64,000 nucleotides of DNA from Verrucomicrobiota bacterium. GTDB lineage: Bacteria > Verrucomicrobiota > Verrucomicrobiia > Limisphaerales > UBA1319. The stretch is taken from NCBI GenBank assembly GCA_022709905.1, contig JAKLHY010000013.1:1-64000 (forward strand). The letters are read 5' to 3'. The notes under the pieces were generated by a model. It was not told the origin of the DNA and ran no database searches. It saw only the letters and a list, made by a program, of their open reading frames with translations. Below, one piece after another: positions 100-36,132 of this stretch (position 1 is its first letter; each line of letters begins with the position of its first letter). Made by a program: the position numbers and the translations under genes.

Positions 100-251
100 C
101 TGCGGCACCCGCCGCAGAAGGATGAGTCTGGAGACTCGTGGCCGGTAATCGAGCATTGCCGAGCCCGCCAGGGCGGAAGAGCATAGCCCAGCGATTCATC
201 GCTGGGGGAGGCGGAGTGACCGGAGCACGAGTCCCGGCAGGGACGCAAGAG
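100..251 (-). repeat. Hairpin-array element, copy 1 (inverted)
   Basis: Five short perfect inverted repeats with 2-4 base loops lie in a row: CTGCGGC/GCCGCAG (100-117), GAGTCT/AGACTC (124-137), CCGCC/GGCGG (165-176), CCCAGCGAT/ATCGCTGGG (187-206) and GTCCC/GGGAC (231-244). The part from 163 to 251, read on the minus strand, matches the element at 30967-31090, sharing the 20-base core palindrome and the flanking CTCTTGCGTCCC and GCTATGCTCTTCCGCCCT. It begins 14 bases after the stop codon of the minus-strand gene ending at 265, so it would lie in that gene's 3' untranslated region. No clear U-tract follows, so simple intrinsic termination is not obvious. Confidence 0.8.
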
Positions 252-25922: not shown

Positions 25923-28900
25923 ATGATCCAGGCAACGGAACTACGACAGCAGCAGATGGGATTCTTATTGCTGACTTTTCTGGGCGTACTAGTTCCCAGT
26001 TTTACCTACGGAGCCGCAAACGGTGTGGAGGTGATCCGAGTGGGGGGATATCCGACTGGTGGCATCTCAAAGGGTGTCGCTGTGCGGGAGGCTTATGCTT
26101 ACGTAGGAGCAGGGACTGCAGGCCTGCAAATTCTTGACGTAGCGAATCCGGGATCGCCGGTCTGGCTTGGCCAATCTCTCACGGACAGAAGTGCTGACCG
26201 AGTTGTTGTGGCTGGGCACAATGCCTACGTAGTAGAGACTGGTCTCAATCTCGGCAACCTAGCCGGCTTGGGCGTGATCAACGTGCACAACCCTAGGGCA
26301 CCACTGCGGTTAAACGAGCATATCACCCCGGGGGTTGCCATGGACGTTGCGATCACTGGCAACTACGCTCTTGTCGCGGACTTGGGAGGCGGGCTCAGCG
26401 TGATCGACATAAGTAGTCCTGCATCGTTGCTCCACGTTGGTAGTGTTCGGACAATCGGATGGGCGACTGCCGTGGAGTGTTTAGGAAAATATGCCTACGT
26501 GGCATGCCAAGGCGACGGTCTCCAGATCATTGACATTGGCAATCCTGCGTTACCAGTAATTGTGGGAGCGTATGACACGTTAGGGACTGCATTAGGCGTT
26601 GCCGTAAGCGGCAATACCGCATTCTTGGCGGACGGCGAAGCAGGTCTTGACGTGATCGACATTAGCAACCCTGCATCGCCTGCTCGGCGGGGAGGCTGCG
26701 ATACCAGCGGGAAAGCATATGACGTTGCCATCGCAGGACAGTACGTGGTCATAGCTGACTGGGATGCGGGAGTACAAATAATCAATGTGTGCAACCTCGC
26801 GGCACCTGTCCGTGTAGGGGGGTGTGACACTGGCGGCAAGGCACGTGGGATTGCCATCGCGGGTAACTACGTCTACGTGGCGGACTGGGACGCGGGACTT
26901 CAGATCATCAGAGTGACCCTCTCCAAGCCTGAATTCGTCGCAACGAACCTCGTTCTCTGCCTGAGCGAATCGGATCCGCGTCATCGCACTTTTTCAGTTA
27001 CCACACAATACCCGGCTGGCACCTCGCTGGATTGGCATCTCGGTGATAGTCTTGTGCATAGTGGCGCGGAGTTCACACCACCGTTGGTTAGTGGAACCTT
27101 TATCTACACGGTTGTGGCCACGAGTTCAGGCCTGGGCTCAAGCGAGGCAGCTACAGTGACTTTGACCGTGGTGGAGACTCCGAAGCCGTTTGTGGTAGAT
27201 CCGGTACGTATTATCGGGCGCTGCCTAGTGGGATCCGACCTTAGTCGTTTTGTGGTTACAAACCCGCCCACCAGAGGTCAACTGAGGTGGTACGACGGTG
27301 AGGTAGAGGTAGGGGTCGGGGCGACTTTTATTGTGCCGGTTGAAGGGGCCGGAACATACGCCTATGAGGTCAGGGCCATTAGTGAAGAGGGTTGTTTTGC
27401 TGAGGCGACTGCTGTGGTTCTCCGTGTTGTGGACAACGGTGTGATTTTTGGCGACCTGAAAGCGACCGGAGCGCAAGGACGACCATTTGAGTATCAGATA
27501 GAGGTTTGCGGTGGCGGTGGGCCGTTTGGAAACATCGACTTCTATGCTTCAGGCCTGCCCGAGGGGTTATCCCTTGACCAAAAGACAGGCGCGATATCGG
27601 GCATCCCTCTGGTGGCTGGAGAATTTGATGTTGAGCTTCGAAGCTACTACCACACCTTCGATATACGAGAACACCGTTGGGACACCAATATCCTGGGACT
27701 GACTCTCGTTAGTGGTGCCCCCAAGATTACGGGCAGCCTGGCAGCTTCTGGTAAGCAGGGGATGCCTTTCTTCTATGCCATCACCGCAACCAACAACCCC
27801 ACAGGATTCCTAGAATCGGGGTTAACGCATGGCCTGTGGCTAAATCCTACGAACGGGGTAGTAACCGGGACGCCTCAGGTGAGTGGCGGTTTTAACGTCC
27901 AAATAACAGCGACCAATCGCTGGGGCTCAGATACCAGAACTCTGTCGCTGATCCTGACCAGCGGCGTGCCTTCGATCACTAGCGCGCTTGCCGCGAGCGG
28001 CAAACAGGGGGTGGCCTTTACCTATGCAATCGCTGCCAGCAACGAACCGACAGGGTTTGCGCAATCTGGATTGCCGCTCGGGCTTTCGTTGGATACGACC
28101 AGCGGGGTGATTTCCGGAATCCCGAAGGTTAGCGGCAGCTTCGCAGTCTCCATCACCGCCAGCAACCCGTGGGGGTCCGACACGAAGATGCTTGCGCTGG
28201 CCCTGGCAAGCGGCGTGCCTTCGATCACCAGCGCCCTCACTGCAAGCGGCAAGCAGGGTGCGACCTTCACCTATGCAATCGCCGCCAGTAACGAACCGAC
28301 GGGGTTTGCGCAATCTGGATTGCCGCTCGGGCTTTCGTTGAATACGACCAGCGGGGTGATCTCCGGAATCCCGCAGATCAGCGGCAGCTTTGCCGTTTCT
28401 CTTACCGCCAGCAACCCGTGGGGGTCCGACACGAAGATACTTGCACTGGCCTTGGCAAGCGGCGTGCCTTCGATCACCAGCGCGCTTGCCGCCAGCGGCC
28501 AACAGGGGGTAGCCTTTACCTATGCAATCGCTGCCAGCAACGAACCGACGGGGTTTGCGCAGACTAGCCTGCCGGCCGGGCTTTCGTTGAACGGGACCAG
28601 TGGGGTGATCTCCGGAATCCCGCAGATCAGCGGCAACTTTGCCGTCTCTCTTACGGTTAGCAACCCGTGGGGGTCTGATACGAAGATTCTTACCCTCGTT
28701 CTGACCAGTGGTGTGCCGGTCATCACCGGCAGTTTGACAGCCAATGGAAAACAAGGCATCGCATTCAGCTATGCCGTCAGGGCGGACCACAATCCCACCG
28801 GCTTTGCCGCCGCCGATCTGCCCTCAGGATTGGAAATCGATGGCACGACCGGGGTGATATCAGGACGCCCCCTTGCGGGCGGGACGTTCAGCTCAACGAT

Positions 28901-30956
28901 CACAGCCACGAACAACTACGGTGCCGACACACGCGCTCTTGTCATCACGGTGGCATCCTCGGTGCCTGTGATCACGAGCGTCACGACTGTTTCGGGTCAG
29001 GAAGGCCAAAGCTTCAGTTACACCATCCAAGCCACTGAATCGCCCACCGAGTTCGGAGCGGACGGGTTGCCGGCGGGGCTGAGTGTGACAGCGGGGACAG
29101 GCGCGATCTCGGGAAAGCCGATGTATGGCGGCAAGCAGGAGGTCGTCATTTGGGCGCGGAACGCGTGGGGGACGGGCAGCAATACGCTCGTTCTCAATTT
29201 GGCGTATGCTGCGATCGGCGGGCTTTCGATCGGGGATGTGACGAATTACTATTCCTCTCCGTATCTGGTTGATTTCGAGTTTTCGCTGCGGGACAACGAT
29301 GATCCGATGGTTGGGCATGCGGTGGTGAGATCGTCCTCGGAGCTGAAGGTGGTTTGCCGGGAGGATGGGCGGAGTATCAGTCCGACCGAAACGGCGTTTG
29401 TGGTGGAGCCGAGAAACCGGAAGCAGCTCAAGAGCTACCTGGTGTTGGACTACACGGCGAGCATGCAGTTTGGGGCGCCAGACACCGATGGGGACGGGGT
29501 CTCCGATGCGATCGAGAACATGGAGGCTGCGGCCAAGACATTCATTAGCCAGCAGCCCGCGGAGTCCCAATATGGCGTCTACGAATTTCACCGGGAGGAC
29601 CGCGCGCCCGTTCGCATTAGCCGGTTTACATCCGACAAGACCGCCTTGCGCGCTGCCATCGATGGCATTCTCGCCAAGGAGATCAAGTCATGGTTTGCCG
29701 GCAGCCGTTGCTGGGACGCGTTGGCGGCGGCTGTGAAAGAGTTCGGCCCGCCCAATCGGGACGAGCAGCGGTATGTGGTGTTTTTGTCCGACGGGCGGGA
29801 CGAGTCAAGCACGAACGCCACTCCGGCACAGATCGTGACGGCGGCGCGGGAGCGGGGCGTGAAGCTTTATTGCGTGGCCTTTGGTTCCGAGATCGACACG
29901 GCAACGCTGCAGCTCCTGACCGGTGAGACGCGGGGACGGTATTATGTGGCGAGCGGGGCTGGAGATCTTTCCGCGCAGTTTGCGCAGGTGGGAAAGGATC
30001 TCGACGGCCAGTATTTGCTTCGCTGGGCGACGCTAAAACAGGGGAGCGCGCCTTTTCGTCCCTCGTTCGAGGTGACGGTGGATGGCAAGACCGCGGCGTT
30101 CAACACGAACCTGGCTTTGCCCTCGCGGGTGCCGGACTATGTGCCGACCGAGAATGCCGGTGACCGCCTGGCCGGAGCGCTGCGTCTGGTGGCGGACGCA
30201 GACGAAAAGCCCAGGTCGGTCACTCTGCGGGCGGCGTATGTGCCGCGGTACATCCGGAATCTGCGGGTGCATTACCGGGCTAATTACCCGTGCACAACCC
30301 GTCTGCGGTCCGCCGCAACTGGGGAGATTCTGAATGGCTGGAACCTGAAGGAGAGTGAAGACGGTCAGGGAGGAAAATGGCTGGAGTTAACCAGTCCATC
30401 CCCAGCCGATCTGAAGACCAGCATCCGGTACGGAGCGATGGGCAACTTGGTGCGGTTTGACTTCACGGAGCTCCGGTCTGCACAGGACGCCTTCAGCGTA
30501 TTCGAGGTGGACAATGCCATTTATTTGGAAACGGGCGGGCAGAGTTTTGCCCTGGAGAATGCGGGCCAGTTCATCACCGTGATGCAGCCCACGCCGCACG
30601 GCACGCCGCCGAACTGGCTGGCGGCGCATGCCTTTACCGGCGACCTAGCGGCAGCGGAGATGAGCGATCCAGACCGCGATGGCTTGCTGACGTGGCAGGA
30701 GTACCGGGCGGGGACGGACCCGCGCGACCAGGCATCCAGCCTCGTGATCCGGCCCGCCGGCCAGGGTGGGGCACCTTTCCATGTGGCCTTCTCCTCGGTG
30801 GCAGGCAAACACTACCGGGTGGAGGCGACCGTTGATTTTGGCGGTTGGCAGGTTGTCCAGGGCGGCTTAGTTGGCACGGGCGAGTCGATGGTCGTCACTG
30901 ACACCCGCCCGTTGGCGGGGGCGCGTCAGGTGTATTACCGACTGGTGGTGGAGTGA
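25923..30956 (+). CDS. Giant secreted LVIVD / He_PIG / vWA protein
   Basis: The 1,677-residue protein starts with a signal peptide (hydrophobic MGFLLLTFLGVLVPSFTYG, residues 12-30). Residues about 40-335 are LVIVD-type repeats of roughly 42 residues (AYAYVGAGTAGLQILDVANP, NTAFLADGEAGLDVIDISNP) forming a propeller. Residues about 340-500 are PKD/Ig-like. From about 500 to 1097 come He_PIG-type putative Ig repeats (GLSLDTTSGVISGIP), four of them on an exact 83-residue period. A vWA domain follows (about 1168-1366, LVLDYTASMQF with a D-x-T-x-S variant of the metal site, a TSP3-like DTDGDGVSD insertion, YVVFLSDGRDESS). Near residue 1583 is an EF-hand/dockerin-like DPDRDGLLTWQEY, then a C-terminal beta module. 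It is probably a surface adhesin. The 5' third appears less GC-rich than the 3' part. Confidence 0.88.
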   Translation: MIQATELRQQQMGFLLLTFLGVLVPSFTYGAANGVEVIRVGGYPTGGISKGVAVREAYAYVGAGTAGLQILDVANPGSPVWLGQSLTDRSADRVVVAGHNAYVVETGLNLGNLAGLGVINVHNPRAPLRLNEHITPGVAMDVAITGNYALVADLGGGLSVIDISSPASLLHVGSVRTIGWATAVECLGKYAYVACQGDGLQIIDIGNPALPVIVGAYDTLGTALGVAVSGNTAFLADGEAGLDVIDISNPASPARRGGCDTSGKAYDVAIAGQYVVIADWDAGVQIINVCNLAAPVRVGGCDTGGKARGIAIAGNYVYVADWDAGLQIIRVTLSKPEFVATNLVLCLSESDPRHRTFSVTTQYPAGTSLDWHLGDSLVHSGAEFTPPLVSGTFIYTVVATSSGLGSSEAATVTLTVVETPKPFVVDPVRIIGRCLVGSDLSRFVVTNPPTRGQLRWYDGEVEVGVGATFIVPVEGAGTYAYEVRAISEEGCFAEATAVVLRVVDNGVIFGDLKATGAQGRPFEYQIEVCGGGGPFGNIDFYASGLPEGLSLDQKTGAISGIPLVAGEFDVELRSYYHTFDIREHRWDTNILGLTLVSGAPKITGSLAASGKQGMPFFYAITATNNPTGFLESGLTHGLWLNPTNGVVTGTPQVSGGFNVQITATNRWGSDTRTLSLILTSGVPSITSALAASGKQGVAFTYAIAASNEPTGFAQSGLPLGLSLDTTSGVISGIPKVSGSFAVSITASNPWGSDTKMLALALASGVPSITSALTASGKQGATFTYAIAASNEPTGFAQSGLPLGLSLNTTSGVISGIPQISGSFAVSLTASNPWGSDTKILALALASGVPSITSALAASGQQGVAFTYAIAASNEPTGFAQTSLPAGLSLNGTSGVISGIPQISGNFAVSLTVSNPWGSDTKILTLVLTSGVPVITGSLTANGKQGIAFSYAVRADHNPTGFAAADLPSGLEIDGTTGVISGRPLAGGTFSSTITATNNYGADTRALVITVASSVPVITSVTTVSGQEGQSFSYTIQATESPTEFGADGLPAGLSVTAGTGAISGKPMYGGKQEVVIWARNAWGTGSNTLVLNLAYAAIGGLSIGDVTNYYSSPYLVDFEFSLRDNDDPMVGHAVVRSSSELKVVCREDGRSISPTETAFVVEPRNRKQLKSYLVLDYTASMQFGAPDTDGDGVSDAIENMEAAAKTFISQQPAESQYGVYEFHREDRAPVRISRFTSDKTALRAAIDGILAKEIKSWFAGSRCWDALAAAVKEFGPPNRDEQRYVVFLSDGRDESSTNATPAQIVTAARERGVKLYCVAFGSEIDTATLQLLTGETRGRYYVASGAGDLSAQFAQVGKDLDGQYLLRWATLKQGSAPFRPSFEVTVDGKTAAFNTNLALPSRVPDYVPTENAGDRLAGALRLVADADEKPRSVTLRAAYVPRYIRNLRVHYRANYPCTTRLRSAATGEILNGWNLKESEDGQGGKWLELTSPSPADLKTSIRYGAMGNLVRFDFTELRSAQDAFSVFEVDNAIYLETGGQSFALENAGQFITVMQPTPHGTPPNWLAAHAFTGDLAAAEMSDPDRDGLLTWQEYRAGTDPRDQASSLVIRPAGQGGAPFHVAFSSVAGKHYRVEATVDFGGWQVVQGGLVGTGESMVVTDTRPLAGARQVYYRLVVE
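27962..28957 (+). repeat. Four direct repeats of exactly 249 bases inside the vWA gene
   Basis: The phrase GGCGTGCC at the start of each unit recurs at 27962, 28211, 28460 and, diverged, at 28709: a fixed 249-base (83-codon) period. Units one to three are nearly identical at the DNA level, for example the block GCAATCGC(T/C)GCCAG. Each encodes one He_PIG-like immunoglobulin domain. The similarity points to recent tandem duplication or ongoing gene conversion. Confidence 0.9.
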
Positions 30957-30966
30957 GCAAAGTGCC

Positions 30967-31090
30967 CTGAATGCAATCCTTGTCCCATGCCTCTCCCCCG
31001 AGCTCTTGCGTCCCGGTCGGGACTCGTGATCCGGTCGTTCGGTCCCCCCAGCGATGAATCGCTGGGCTATGCTCTTCCGCCCTGCCGGGC
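30967..31090 (+). repeat. Hairpin-array element, copy 3
   Basis: The 100 bases at 30967-31066 match 15576-15675 with three differences. It contains GTCCC/GGGAC (31010-31023), the core palindrome CCCAGCGAT/ATCGCTGGG (31047-31066) and a short GCCC/GGGC (31079-31090). The flank GCTATGCTCTTCCGCCCT is shared with copy 1. It starts 10 bases after the stop codon of the giant vWA gene. The rest of this 618-base gap holds the PEP-CTERM remnant and an AT-rich stretch (about 31460-31545). Confidence 0.85.
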
Positions 31091-31251
31091 TGGAGCGACG
31101 CTTCCAGGGATTCGGTCGTCGTGAATCGAGTTCAGGGATCGGTTGACGATGAATGTCCACCGCATGCCTGCGTGCGGGGACAGATCTTGAGATCAACGCA
31201 TCGGCACAGACCGCGTTGCGGACTGCGACTTGTCCGTCTGGCAAAAACAAT

Positions 31252-31574: not shown

Positions 31575-33404
31575 TTATGGCAAAGGTTCTCCCGCTCCTT
31601 CGACAAATATAGAATGCCGCCACAGTTCAGCCGGCAGCGGTGAGCGATGCTTGAGACAAGCCAACACGATAACAGAGATGGGAAGTCCCTCGGGAAAGGG
31701 ATTTTTTCGAGCACTGCGACTCATTCGAATGAAGTGTTCCAGATGGTTTGCGATAGTCGCACCATCCCGAACGGCATTGGGGCCAAGCGTTTCAATGCTC
31801 TGGCATTCACCGTCATCGGCCAAACCTTGCCCTAGCACTTTCAGTCCCCAATCCTCCCGCGGAACCCAGCTCAGCAAGTCGATCGGTATGGCATCTCCCA
31901 GGGGTTTCCCTTCGTTGTCGATGCCGAGAACGATTTGTCTGTAATACAGCTCGATGAGTTGATTTCGTTGTTCAGTCGGGAGGCTGAAGCACCACTCCAT
32001 AATGCAAAGCAACAACATTGAACTGTTATCGCAAAACTCAGGTGGCTTTTCTTCGGTAGCAATGGTCTCCAAAACTGTGCTGAGAGAGTTACCACCTTCC
32101 AGGAATGGCAAAGGTGTTGATCCGGCACGCCGCACCAGCAGACAATTTCGCAAGTGGTGAAGCCAGGTGAAAATGTCGTTCAAACGCCTCGACTGCCAAA
32201 AAGTTCTCCAAATGAGAAACAGTTCGATATGGTGGAGATCAAGCAGGGGTCGAAACGTTGCGGGATTCGCGTTGAGCAGGCGCGCAAGTCGGTTCGCCGC
32301 TTTTTGTATGGCTGCTTTCCGGCCGGTTCCTTCCGCGTTACCCTTCTGCGGCATCAGTTCCGCGTATGCTTGGGCGAGGATTCCAAGACGCGCGATATGC
32401 CAAAAGGCGACGACTGCCGCAACCACGCTGTCCACGTAACTGCCGGTATGATCGACTGCCAGACCGTCCTTGGTTGCCAATTCATCGCTGTGGACTTCGT
32501 AAAAGCGCTCCAACTCAGCGAGGTAGAAACCAACCCACATCTGAGACACTGCGACTCGGACACGTTCATTGGCAGAAGTCTGATGGACATGCCACGCGCA
32601 AAGCATTGCCCATTCCGCCAAGTCGATCCAACCGGTCTCTGAAGTGCGATTCTTGCCTCCTTGTTCGCGGAGAATGAGCAGTGCCACAGGTAGTAAACGA
32701 ACCGTTCTTTCGTCCGCGTTTTCGGACAATACGTCCGCCAAGAAGCGCCGCCAATTGGGGACTAGCTGGCTTGTCCACTCGTCTGAGCCGTGGCGAAAAT
32801 CGGCAAATTGCGAGCAGATGTAACTGAACAGGCTAAAAAGATGCTGTGGCACCAGCGACGGCGTCAGCAGTTTCTCTTTCACTTGTTCGACTAACCGGGT
32901 GAGATTCCATCGCTCGAATCTGAGCGGGACGTTGTCGCCGACCTTGGTCCCGAGCGCTTTTGTCTGACGCTCGAATAAATCGATGCCGGTCTGGTCCTCG
33001 TCTTTATTATAAGCGAGGATGACTCTTACTTCAGAAATATGCCTTAATCCGCTTGCCGCCAGGTCCGGAGCGGCCGCGCGTCGCAAGTCCCCATCGAAAT
33101 CATTTTGCGTCCACGTGGAGTTACTGAGCGGCTCGTCCTTCAACACAAAAATCGTGAGGGCCTTGCCGTCACGCGATACGAATGCGGCATCAATGCCGAA
33201 TTCAGCCTCGGTCTTGGTTTTTGAAATCTCCTCGGCCCCACCACGAAAGAACGGAAGACGATGCGGAATCAGATCCTCAGCCAAAGCCAAGTTATAAATG
33301 ATCCAATCGAAACCAAACTTCGTGCCTTTCTTCTCCGCGCGGGTCCTTTCCGCCAGACTTCGGATGTAGTAAGTCAGGAAGGATGTTTTGACATCGGCAT
33401 TCAT
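31575..33404 (-). CDS. Island protein C: PD-(D/E)XK-like N-terminal domain plus helical region
   Basis: I recognise no named family. In this 609-residue protein the first 180 residues look like a restriction-endonuclease-like fold: helix, then TEAEFGIDAAFVSRDGK and TIFVLKDE (Glu68, Asp72, Lys89 as candidate catalytic residues, though Leu replaces the usual acidic residue before the lysine), and the closing ERWNLTRLVEQVKEKL, a pattern common at the end of Mrr-like nuclease domains in defence proteins. The remaining 420 residues are all-helical without an ATPase motif. The start ATG overlaps the stop of the upstream gene (ATGA, 33401-33404). It is the last gene of the three-gene island. No signal peptide: cytoplasmic. 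Confidence 0.65.
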   Translation of the reverse strand: MNADVKTSFLTYYIRSLAERTRAEKKGTKFGFDWIIYNLALAEDLIPHRLPFFRGGAEEISKTKTEAEFGIDAAFVSRDGKALTIFVLKDEPLSNSTWTQNDFDGDLRRAAAPDLAASGLRHISEVRVILAYNKDEDQTGIDLFERQTKALGTKVGDNVPLRFERWNLTRLVEQVKEKLLTPSLVPQHLFSLFSYICSQFADFRHGSDEWTSQLVPNWRRFLADVLSENADERTVRLLPVALLILREQGGKNRTSETGWIDLAEWAMLCAWHVHQTSANERVRVAVSQMWVGFYLAELERFYEVHSDELATKDGLAVDHTGSYVDSVVAAVVAFWHIARLGILAQAYAELMPQKGNAEGTGRKAAIQKAANRLARLLNANPATFRPLLDLHHIELFLIWRTFWQSRRLNDIFTWLHHLRNCLLVRRAGSTPLPFLEGGNSLSTVLETIATEEKPPEFCDNSSMLLLCIMEWCFSLPTEQRNQLIELYYRQIVLGIDNEGKPLGDAIPIDLLSWVPREDWGLKVLGQGLADDGECQSIETLGPNAVRDGATIANHLEHFIRMSRSARKNPFPEGLPISVIVLACLKHRSPLPAELWRHSIFVEGAGEPLP

Positions 33405-35485
33405 CCGTCGGTTTCTGCTTCGGTCGTGTTGCTGAGTTCTCGGATCTTGACGGAGGCCTGATAGCGTCGGAGGCTCATTCCTTCTGGATCGATGAATTCC
33501 ATGCGCGGCACCTCCATGGAACTGGAGAACTGCTGAAGACTCGATCTGTCACCCAATGTGCCCTCATGAAACACGCTCCATTGATTACCGTAAAGAAGCC
33601 TTACTTTACTGAAAAGCTTCATGAATACCGACATTTGTTCCGCGCCCTTTTCGACTGCGCGCGCAAAACGTCGGGCATTCAGATTCAGCGCTTGTCGAGC
33701 TCCTGCTACCGCCATTCCAGCAATTCCCGATTCCTTAACTCGCGTCAGTCGCTCAAAGTACGCTTCTCCCTCGTCAATTGCCTTCCGAAGAACAGGAAAC
33801 TCGGTCGAGCGACGCTGAAATTCGTCGCGGCATCCGCCAGGATAATTCTGCAACTGGAGTGCAAGTTCGTTATGAAACTCGCGTTGCAGGGCGCTGCTCA
33901 TGCGCTCGATTGGAGAGATCAGAAGAATGAGAAAGCGTGCGTTTGCCGCCGCGTGAAGGGGTGTGCGTTGTGATTCGTAAAAGGCCAAGGCCAGTCGGCG
34001 TTCCTCCAATCTAACAAGCAACTCATCCGGTAAAGTATTCAAATCGAGTTCGTCAAAAAGGAACAGGCCAAGTTTCCGGCAGGGAGCCGTTTCATCGAAT
34101 ACAAGTTGACCAACTGCGCCTGCGACCTCGCGTCCGCGCATTTCCGAAAGCAGCCACTCAAACTCGCGGCCTGTGTTCAGGACCTTAAGCCAGTTGGCGG
34201 CGTTGGCGCGCGCAAAGGCCAACAGAAAATTCGTGAAGGCAGCGAGGTCTCGCCTTAGCAACTCTACAAAGAAATGCTCAATCCGTTGCCAAATGCCTTT
34301 GTGTTTTGGCAGGACCGGCTGTACGGACAAAATCAGTTCAGAAGCGTCACTCGTGCTTTCCGATCGAAACTGCGCTGCGAAGTCAATGACATGGTACATC
34401 GCCGTAGGCGAAAGCGACGACGAGGCGTTGGCACGCAACCAAGCCATCCCAAAGTCGAAACAGTCTGGAGGAATGGACGGGCTGAGCAGAGATCGACAGA
34501 CAATCCCGAAAGCCTGCTCGCCCTCCTCAATTGCTCCGGCGGAGATGCGTGAGATGAGCGCCTGAAGATCGGCTTTTTTCATCGTCCCGCGCCAAGCAGT
34601 TTGAATCCATGAGCGATTGTAGACCGCCCGCGGAGTCGGGGTCGCCGCACGCGAAAACTCGAGCTCAATTGCATCCAGGACATTCTGAAGATCCGAATTG
34701 GCGTTTAACGAACGAAGCGTGCCAAGGACATATGCGGCAACCAATATTTGCTTTTCATCGCGCGCTGCTTCCAAACACCGAAGAACCTCCACTGCAGTTC
34801 GGGGATGATGCTCGCAGTAGGCTTCCAGTGCTTTCCAAAAACCCCCTGATGCCAAATCGTTGCCTATTCTTTTGACCAAAGAAGGAAACCAATCAGCTGC
34901 GAACTGGGGCCGCAATTCTCGGCAGCGTAGCAGAGAACCTAAACAGTCGAGTGTTTGAAAAAATCCAGGATTGCCAACGCGTGGTAACGCTGCCAGCAAT
35001 GTTTCACCTTTTTCAGAGTCGAGCTGTTCGATCGCACTGCTCAAAAACGCGCCCGCGAGGCTTGCTGAGGCTTCATTCCATCCGAGACGCATCTGCAAAT
35101 CGTTGAGGCGTTCGAAAAACTCGACAGTTAGGGGAAGGCCGATCGGAAACAGAGCTCTGACAAGAGCTGCAACTCGTTCACGATCTGCGAGCGTTGCCTT
35201 GATTTCCATCTCGAGCGCGCTTTGGGATTCAGCGAGCCATTGCGATCTGCGCTGTTGCGGTTGACCACCGATCGTTTCCTTGATGGCATTTATCAGGAGC
35301 GGAGCCGATTTGTCCTGTCGCGCGCGGGAAGATCCGTCACCTTTGTTTCGTTCGCCGGCTAATCCGATGATCAAATCCTCGCGAAGCCGTTCCAAAATAA
35401 GCAACTTTTCCTCAAAGGGCAGCGCCTGGAGCTGCCGTCGCGTTCGGCGTTTGCTTTCGAAGGCTTTGCTGGTTTTGCGAGTCAT
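33401..35485 (-). CDS. Island protein B: large alpha-helical solenoid protein, unknown function
   Basis: I recognise no family. The 694-residue product is almost entirely helical, with repeated paired helices of HEAT/armadillo style (GFFQTLDCLGSLLRCRELRP, GGFWKALEAYCEHHPRTAVE, ELLRRDLAAFTNFLLAFARA). The N-terminus has a basic segment and RRQLQALPFEEKLLILERLRED. No nucleotide-binding, nuclease or membrane motif is visible. ATG 35485 is preferred over 35521 because it makes a 4-base ATGA overlap with the upstream gene's stop, matching the overlap at the other end. Sandwiched between a nucleotidyltransferase-like and a nuclease-like protein, it may be a scaffold or sensor; that is inference. Confidence 0.65.
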   Translation of the reverse strand: MTRKTSKAFESKRRTRRQLQALPFEEKLLILERLREDLIIGLAGERNKGDGSSRARQDKSAPLLINAIKETIGGQPQQRRSQWLAESQSALEMEIKATLADRERVAALVRALFPIGLPLTVEFFERLNDLQMRLGWNEASASLAGAFLSSAIEQLDSEKGETLLAALPRVGNPGFFQTLDCLGSLLRCRELRPQFAADWFPSLVKRIGNDLASGGFWKALEAYCEHHPRTAVEVLRCLEAARDEKQILVAAYVLGTLRSLNANSDLQNVLDAIELEFSRAATPTPRAVYNRSWIQTAWRGTMKKADLQALISRISAGAIEEGEQAFGIVCRSLLSPSIPPDCFDFGMAWLRANASSSLSPTAMYHVIDFAAQFRSESTSDASELILSVQPVLPKHKGIWQRIEHFFVELLRRDLAAFTNFLLAFARANAANWLKVLNTGREFEWLLSEMRGREVAGAVGQLVFDETAPCRKLGLFLFDELDLNTLPDELLVRLEERRLALAFYESQRTPLHAAANARFLILLISPIERMSSALQREFHNELALQLQNYPGGCRDEFQRRSTEFPVLRKAIDEGEAYFERLTRVKESGIAGMAVAGARQALNLNARRFARAVEKGAEQMSVFMKLFSKVRLLYGNQWSVFHEGTLGDRSSLQQFSSSMEVPRMEFIDPEGMSLRRYQASVKIRELSNTTEAETDG

Positions 35486-36132
35486 GGGTCGCTGAGAAAC
35501 TGCTGCCTGAATTGTTTCCACTTGTCGAGCAGTTGATGTTGGTTGAGAATTACCTCCAGCGCTTTCTGGTCAATCACATCTGCATCGAAGAACTGTAGAA
35601 TTCTCGCTTTGTCTTTCGGGCGGCCCGTTTCGAGCGCGATCGCCAAAAGGTGTTCGGCGGTGAACACGAATGTGAGGACGCCTTCTATGTTTACCGGCCT
35701 TGACTGTGCGATAGCTTCTTCGACCAGCGGACCTGTTGGCGGCAGAAACTGAACAAGCCAATCTTCAACTTGGAGCGCCTCACCGACTGCGGTGTAACCC
35801 CGCTTCGTCAGATAGTCGTAAATCGGCCGTGGCGTAATGATCAAACTTCCGGCTTCAGGTTGAATCGCGACAAACACATCGACATCCATCGTCGGCATAG
35901 GCTCCAAATAGAACGTTGCGCCTACGGCCCCGCCGATTGCGTAGCGGCCAATCACCCCGGCTGCTTGCATGTCATTGATGACTTTAAGCGTCCGCGTGAG
36001 CTTCAGCGTGGCGCGTGGCAGTGCGGGACGTTTTTCAAAATATGATTCACGCAAGGCATTTACGTCCTCAGCACGGATTGAAAGTATTTGGTCTGCACCG
36101 GCGGTTTTTCGATGATTCTGTTCTTGTGCCAT
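35482..36132 (-). CDS. Island protein A: nucleotidyltransferase-like protein (AbiEii/DUF6036-like)
   Basis: The 216-residue product resembles small MNT/AbiEii-type nucleotidyltransferases. IGRYAIGGAVGATFYLEPMPTMDVDVFV contains the Gly-Gly pair (residues 67-68) and the acidic pair Asp83/Asp85 of the family. VEDWLVQFLPP stands where a third carboxylate strand is expected, but Gln is at the centre, so catalysis is uncertain. The C-terminal ETGRPKDKARILQFFDADVIDQ matches the helical tail of these proteins. Family members modify targets with nucleotides in toxin-antitoxin and abortive-infection systems, but no AbiEi-like partner is present upstream. It is the first gene of the island and overlaps the next by ATGA. 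Confidence 0.75.
   Translation of the reverse strand: MAQEQNHRKTAGADQILSIRAEDVNALRESYFEKRPALPRATLKLTRTLKVINDMQAAGVIGRYAIGGAVGATFYLEPMPTMDVDVFVAIQPEAGSLIITPRPIYDYLTKRGYTAVGEALQVEDWLVQFLPPTGPLVEEAIAQSRPVNIEGVLTFVFTAEHLLAIALETGRPKDKARILQFFDADVIDQKALEVILNQHQLLDKWKQFRQQFLSDP

What the first reader, a model, noticed from the sequence alone, without database searches (positions are those of the whole stretch)
31575..36132. Three-gene ATGA-coupled island: nucleotidyltransferase, helical solenoid, PD-(D/E)XK-like protein
Three minus-strand genes with 4-base ATGA overlaps form one transcription unit without recognisable housekeeping role. The first resembles AbiEii/MNT nucleotidyltransferases but has no antitoxin partner, the second is an all-helical repeat protein, and the third combines a restriction-endonuclease-like N-terminus with a helical C-terminus. 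The region reads as less GC-rich than its flanks and lies beside a gene remnant. This composition fits an uncharacterised defence or toxin system (inference).
Basis: partly seen in the sequence, partly recalled or inferred. Interest (0 to 1): 0.78.

Follow-up and report, generated by a model that had tools for sequence, protein, structure and literature searches.

The report
Olokun defence with built-in toxin tether
The three genes are a known bacterial anti-phage system (Olokun) in which one subunit has swallowed the small partner protein of a toxin-like enzyme encoded just before it; the same enzyme-partner module sits inside other anti-phage systems elsewhere, which suggests a self-destruct guard wired into the defence machine.

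Summary
In detail: three minus-strand genes joined by two ATGA overlaps, in the lowest-GC stretch of the window. Genes B and C are OloA and OloB of the known two-gene anti-phage system Olokun (PADLOC E=2e-30 and 5e-20). Gene A is a nucleotidyltransferase (NTase) whose profile and predicted fold are closest to the MenT1 toxin. The same fused triplet occurs in a Spartobacteria genome. In three other genomes the partner is fused to HsdS of type I restriction-modification (RM). Unfused copies lie inside type I RM and BREX operons. All defence-linked copies fall in one NTase clade (13 of 41 adjacent, against 0 of 39 outside it). Most likely mechanism (inferred): the fused domain holds a tRNA-directed NTase toxin silent until the defence complex is disturbed, as EcoprrI holds PrrC. 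The PD-(D/E)XK claim for gene C stays inconclusive. No activity is shown.

The parts
35482..36132 (-). Gene A: MenT1-like nucleotidyltransferase, 216 aa; core residues 41-216; T81-x-D83-x-D85 motif, R171, K173, D174
36013..36132 (-). Poorly ordered N-terminal extension of gene A (residues 1-40), absent from most homologues, present in L068
33401..35485 (-). Gene B: fusion protein, partner domain + OloA, 694 aa
35345..35485 (-). N-terminal partner (antitoxin-like) domain of gene B, residues 1-47, homologous to the standalone 45-85 aa protein that follows gene-A homologues
33458..35032 (-). OloA homology region of gene B (residues 152-676; OloA model positions 63-588)
31575..33404 (-). Gene C: OloB, 609 aa
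32865..33404 (-). N-terminal region of OloB (residues 1-180) with possible PD-(D/E)XK core: invariant G70, D72, K89 in six OloB; fold not confirmed
35482..35485 (-). ATGA overlap of A and B
33401..33404 (-). ATGA overlap of B and C

Best explanation
An Olokun anti-phage operon (oloA-oloB) that has captured a toxin-antitoxin-like module. Gene A is a MenT1-like NTase. Its small helical partner, normally a separate gene directly downstream, is fused to the N-terminus of OloA. Shown by sequence: the OloA/OloB identities, the NTase family and fold, the fusion, its recurrence in a second genome, and the repeated insertion of the same module into type I RM and BREX operons, with a separate fusion to HsdS. 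Inferred: the fused domain binds the NTase active site and keeps it silent while OloA is intact within the Olokun complex. When a phage disables, occupies or degrades that complex, or when the complex is triggered, the NTase is freed or switched on, modifies tRNA 3' ends and stops translation. This would be a fail-safe layer like PrrC held by EcoprrI.
For: PADLOC OloA E=2.1e-30 and OloB E=4.6e-20. NTase profile hits MenT1 E=6e-4. AlphaFold2 model pLDDT 88; the best five PDB matches are all MenT1/MenAT1, E=1e-8 to 4e-6. A profile of 75 standalone partners finds only gene B among all window frames (E=5e-13); the real N-terminus scores 44 bits against at most 14 for 5000 shuffles; four other OloA give no hit. 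L068 carries the same triplet with the same overlap. HsdS fusions in L101, L142, L143. Module next to or between hsdR, hsdM, hsdS, or pglX and brxC in ten loci. All defence-linked copies in one clade, 13/41 adjacent against 0/39 outside; OloA and HsdS fusions in separate clades. MenA1, a 68-aa protein, inhibits MenT1, and its helix 1-32 is enough to induce auto-phosphorylation and inhibit toxicity (PMC10435456, PMC11375011). PrrC is silenced by a linked, physically associated type I RM enzyme (PMC2610378).
Against: No toxicity, tRNA modification, binding or phage assay exists for this family. The partner profile does not find MenA1 in the PDB, so shared antitoxin ancestry is not shown. MenT1 K137 and D152 have no identical residue at the aligned positions (alignment is weak). 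Much of the NTase family stands alone without a recognised defence neighbour, so guarding is not its only use. Only two OloA fusions are known.
Confidence: 0.55

Rival explanations
1. The NTase is the main effector of this Olokun variant, not a back-up: OloAB senses the phage and, through the fused domain, positions or activates the NTase.
For: The fused domain ties NTase control directly to OloA. Gene A is first in the operon with tight coupling.
Against: Other OloAB pairs lack the NTase and the domain (L027, L028, L029, L152), so Olokun has its own effector. The same module serves RM and BREX, which have their own effectors.
Confidence: 0.2
2. Addiction only: the NTase and its fused antitoxin stabilise the defence operon. 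Loss of the operon leaves long-lived NTase without antitoxin and the cell is poisoned; there is no role in phage sensing.
For: Gene order and overlap are typical of toxin-antitoxin pairs; the module is widespread and mostly standalone. Addiction is a known role of such pairs (general knowledge).
Against: Simple addiction does not need fusion to HsdS or OloA. Repeated insertion inside RM/BREX operons and two separate fusions suggest a tie to the state of the complex.
Confidence: 0.17
3. The NTase is not a toxin; it modifies OloA, OloB or an RM subunit (for example by adding nucleotides) to regulate them, as MNT proteins AMPylate HEPN toxins.
For: NTases of this superfamily can act as antitoxins (general knowledge); the partner is a defence subunit.
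Against: Nearest structures are MenT1, not MNT; an MNT-HEPN entry ranks only 49th at E=0.11. The partner is a ~50-aa helical domain, not HEPN, and exists mostly alone.
Confidence: 0.08

Closest known systems
Olokun (OloA-OloB; defence system cited in PMC10121019)
   Same: Two adjacent genes oloA-oloB matched over most of their length
   Different: A third gene (NTase) upstream and a ~47-residue partner domain plus linker at the OloA N-terminus; other OloA begin without it
MenAT1 toxin-antitoxin (MenT1/MenA1; PDB 8an4, 8an5)
   Same: NTase fold, T-x-D-x-D motif, small protein partner
   Different: NTase comes first, partner second (MenA1 precedes MenT1); partner has no detectable similarity to MenA1; MenT1 K137 and D152 not matched; in the window the partner is part of a defence subunit
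PrrC held by EcoprrI (type Ic RM)
   Same: Putative tRNA-directed toxin encoded with and tied to a DNA-directed defence complex; here even to HsdS in three genomes
   Different: PrrC is an ABC-ATPase anticodon nuclease; here an NTase with a dedicated small partner domain, and in the window the complex is Olokun
BREX back-up effectors (PMC12839542, including HEPN and HEPN-MNT)
   Same: Extra suicidal effectors added to a DNA-directed system
   Different: The module here is MenT-like with a small helical partner; the searched passages of that paper mention only HEPN-fused MNT nucleotidyltransferases

Membership tests
Olokun | OloA homologue | tested here: met
   PADLOC PDLC03925 E=2.1e-30, residues 152-676, model 63-588/596
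Olokun | OloB homologue directly downstream | tested here: met
   PADLOC PDLC03926 E=4.6e-20, ATGA overlap
Olokun | Protection against phages | not testable with these tools
   No assay
MenAT (MenT1 type) | MenT-like NTase fold with T-x-D-x-D | tested here: met
MenAT (MenT1 type) | DUF1814/AbiEii Pfam match | tested here: not met
   No significant match for P0001 or 20 homologues, best DUF2204 E=0.0012 in 3 members
MenAT (MenT1 type) | Further catalytic residues K137 and D152 | tested here: not met
   No identical residue at aligned positions in a weak alignment; K173 and D174 are nearly invariant nearby
MenAT (MenT1 type) | Small antitoxin homologous to MenA1 | tested here: not met
   A small coupled partner exists, but its profile finds no MenA1 in the PDB at E<=10
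MenAT (MenT1 type) | Toxic tRNA 3'-end modification relieved by the partner | not testable with these tools
   No assay
HEPN/MNT | HEPN toxin partner | tested here: not met
   Partner is a ~50-aa domain with no Pfam family
PD-(D/E)XK nuclease (gene C) | alpha-beta-beta-beta-alpha-beta core | tested here: inconclusive
   Model shows this order but pLDDT 47 with 2 sequences; no significant PDB match
PD-(D/E)XK nuclease (gene C) | D...(D/E)xK motif | tested here: inconclusive
   G70, D72, K89 invariant in six OloB, but the residue two before K89 is V, T or S; no Pfam or PDB profile match
PrrC-type guard | PrrC homologue linked to type I RM | tested here: not met
   Toxin candidate is an NTase; only the arrangement is alike

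The most novel reading that the evidence does not exclude
A transferable guard module: one clade of MenT-like NTases with a ~50-aa inhibitor domain is plugged into unrelated DNA-directed defence systems (Olokun, type I RM, BREX), either as an embedded gene pair or by fusing the inhibitor to a subunit (OloA, HsdS), so that disabling the defence complex releases a translation-stopping enzyme.
Probability: 0.45. Interest if true: 0.8.

Novelty: new variant of a known kind. Interest (0 to 1): 0.6.

Why it matters
Olokun has no published mechanism that I could find here (PMC12592470 calls it not thoroughly characterised). This variant ties it to a testable effector. If the guard reading is right, it offers a general way to find back-up toxins: small inhibitor domains fused to defence subunits. 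It would also extend the PrrC principle to a tRNA-tailing NTase and to Olokun and BREX.

Tried and rejected
Pfam, NCBIfam and PDB searches with the single proteins gave nothing useful. Plasmids: no OloA match, one NTase match in Methylovirgula; no NTase match among phages. Viral contigs: no NTase or OloB relatives. A first genome-contig scan with OloA alone found nothing. The OloB model was too poor for fold comparison. HEPN/MNT was rejected (no HEPN partner). Weak OloA hits in other genomes of the phylum fit only part of the model near the threshold and were taken as generic helical-repeat proteins. No long direct repeats mark the ends of the island. An early notebook entry paired MenT1 D152 with D174; the alignment pairs D149 with D174, and the report uses that.

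Full report
What is there. Three minus-strand genes lie at 36132-31575: A (216 aa), B (694 aa from the ATG at 35485) and C (609 aa). Both junctions are ATGA overlaps. The stretch has 53.3% GC against 58.8% in the rest of the window, and the lowest of all 4.56-kb stretches starts at 31801. The window's genome holds one copy of A and one of B.

Genes B and C are Olokun. PADLOC models call B OloA (E=2.1e-30, residues 152-676) and C OloB (E=4.6e-20). Pfam and NCBIfam have no model for any of the three. In the 388 genomes sampled from the phylum, clear OloA homologues appear in only four, this one included. Their neighbourhoods differ: L027 (a helicase-like ORF and others nearby), L028, and L029 (a type I methyltransferase-like ORF and an HsdS-like ORF nearby) (read from the sequences, not profile-tested). 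Two of 274 genomes from the class of a Pseudomonadota genome have OloA matches as well.

Gene A is a MenT1-like NTase. An alignment of 20 homologues hits MenT1 in the PDB (E=6e-4). T39, D41 and D43 of MenT1 correspond to T81, D83 and D85; R146 and D149 to R171 and D174. K137 and D152 have no identical counterpart in this weak alignment. With 69 sequences AlphaFold2 gives pLDDT 88, and the five best PDB folds are all MenT1 or MenAT1 (E=1.2e-8 to 3.7e-6).

Gene A has a partner, and it is fused to OloA. In the phylum survey, nearly every gene-A homologue is followed, usually with a short overlap, by a 48-85 aa protein with the pattern KR..RR.LA.LP..EKL..LE.LR. Three (L053, L056, L057) have it upstream instead. 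In 80 further loci from many phyla the partner follows in essentially every case. A profile trained on 75 standalone partners, with no fused protein included, was run on all frames of the window and nine loci. It finds the N-terminus of gene B (E=5e-13), the L068 OloA (4e-12) and three HsdS proteins, and nothing in L027, L028, L029, L152 or L153. The first 60 residues of gene B score 44.4 bits; the best of 5000 shuffles scores 14.1. So the domain is real and specific to this OloA branch.

It recurs. Spartobacteria contig PLCN01000022 (L068) has the same three genes in the same order with the same overlap between B and C. OloA is 51% and OloB 63% identical, and the NTase 64-68%, with different flanks.

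The module is built into other defence systems. In L101, L142 and L143 the partner is fused to HsdS. Unfused pairs sit between hsdR and hsdM-type genes (L084, L085), between hsdR and hsdS (L072, L077, L095, L103), between hsdM and hsdS (L098), before hsdM (L079), between pglX and brxC (L081) and before brxC (L092). A tblastn count with these proteins over all 80 loci finds adjacent defence genes only within one NTase clade, always on the same strand: 13 of 41 inside (OloA of L068 included) against 0 of 39 outside (Fisher p=8e-5; relatedness is not corrected for). Farther ORFs of the same loci gave no HsdS match among the families listed for 101 ORFs, against 5 of 101 nearby. The clade has 99/92 support. 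The OloA fusions (100/99) and HsdS fusions (96/87) are separate branches, so at least two fusions most likely happened.

How it probably works (inference). MenT1 is a toxin that tails tRNA 3' ends. Its 68-aa antitoxin MenA1 blocks it, and helix 1-32 of MenA1 is enough to induce auto-phosphorylation and inhibit toxicity (PMC10435456, PMC11375011). A ~47-residue helical domain on OloA could do the same. PrrC shows that a tRNA-attacking toxin can be kept silent by a linked type I RM enzyme and freed when a phage inhibits that enzyme (PMC2610378). Fusion of the partner to HsdS and to OloA is what a PrrC-like guard would look like. Not shown: toxicity, substrate, binding, trigger. The partner profile does not detect MenA1, so this is 'works like', not membership.

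Gene C. Six OloB share G70, D72 and K89, and the model's N-terminus has the element order of a PD-(D/E)XK core. But its pLDDT is 47 from two sequences, fold comparison finds nothing significant, the acidic residue two before the lysine is missing, and no profile search agrees. The claim is open.

Verdict. The island is a known defence system in a new configuration. The identities and the fusion are firm. The guard mechanism is the best reading at about one in two.

Noticed in passing
window 31047-31091 (+) and 162-206 (-): Two Acido-Lenti-1 RNAs (RF01687) above the gathering score; one lies just beyond the downstream end of the Olokun operon.
   Followed up: no
window 25923-30956 (+), repeat at 27946-28691: A 1677-aa protein with LVIVD repeats, He_PIG Ig-like domains and a VWA domain; three 249-nt tandem copies encode near-identical Ig-like units.
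   Followed up: no
L153 6611-9166 (G663, a genome from the class of the Pseudomonadota genome G483): A hit to the OloA model (E=1.4e-44) in an 851-aa ORF with a different long N-terminal part and no OloB-sized gene directly after it, near an integrase-like ORF; the OloA N-terminus may be a frequent fusion site.
   Followed up: partly
L029 8231-9118: Another OloAB (G048) is directly preceded by a restriction-endonuclease-like (Mrr-like by eye) gene instead of an NTase.
   Followed up: no
L142 7593-8072: A second, different small NTase-like ORF (159 aa) directly after the partner-HsdS fusion.
   Followed up: no
L053, L056, L057: Gene-A homologues in which the small partner-like ORF lies upstream and overlaps the NTase start, the reverse of the usual order.
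   Followed up: no
L147 6709-8655: A standalone NTase-partner pair is followed by a 648-aa ORF that looks like a nucleotide-binding TIR-type protein by eye, possibly another defence link.
   Followed up: no
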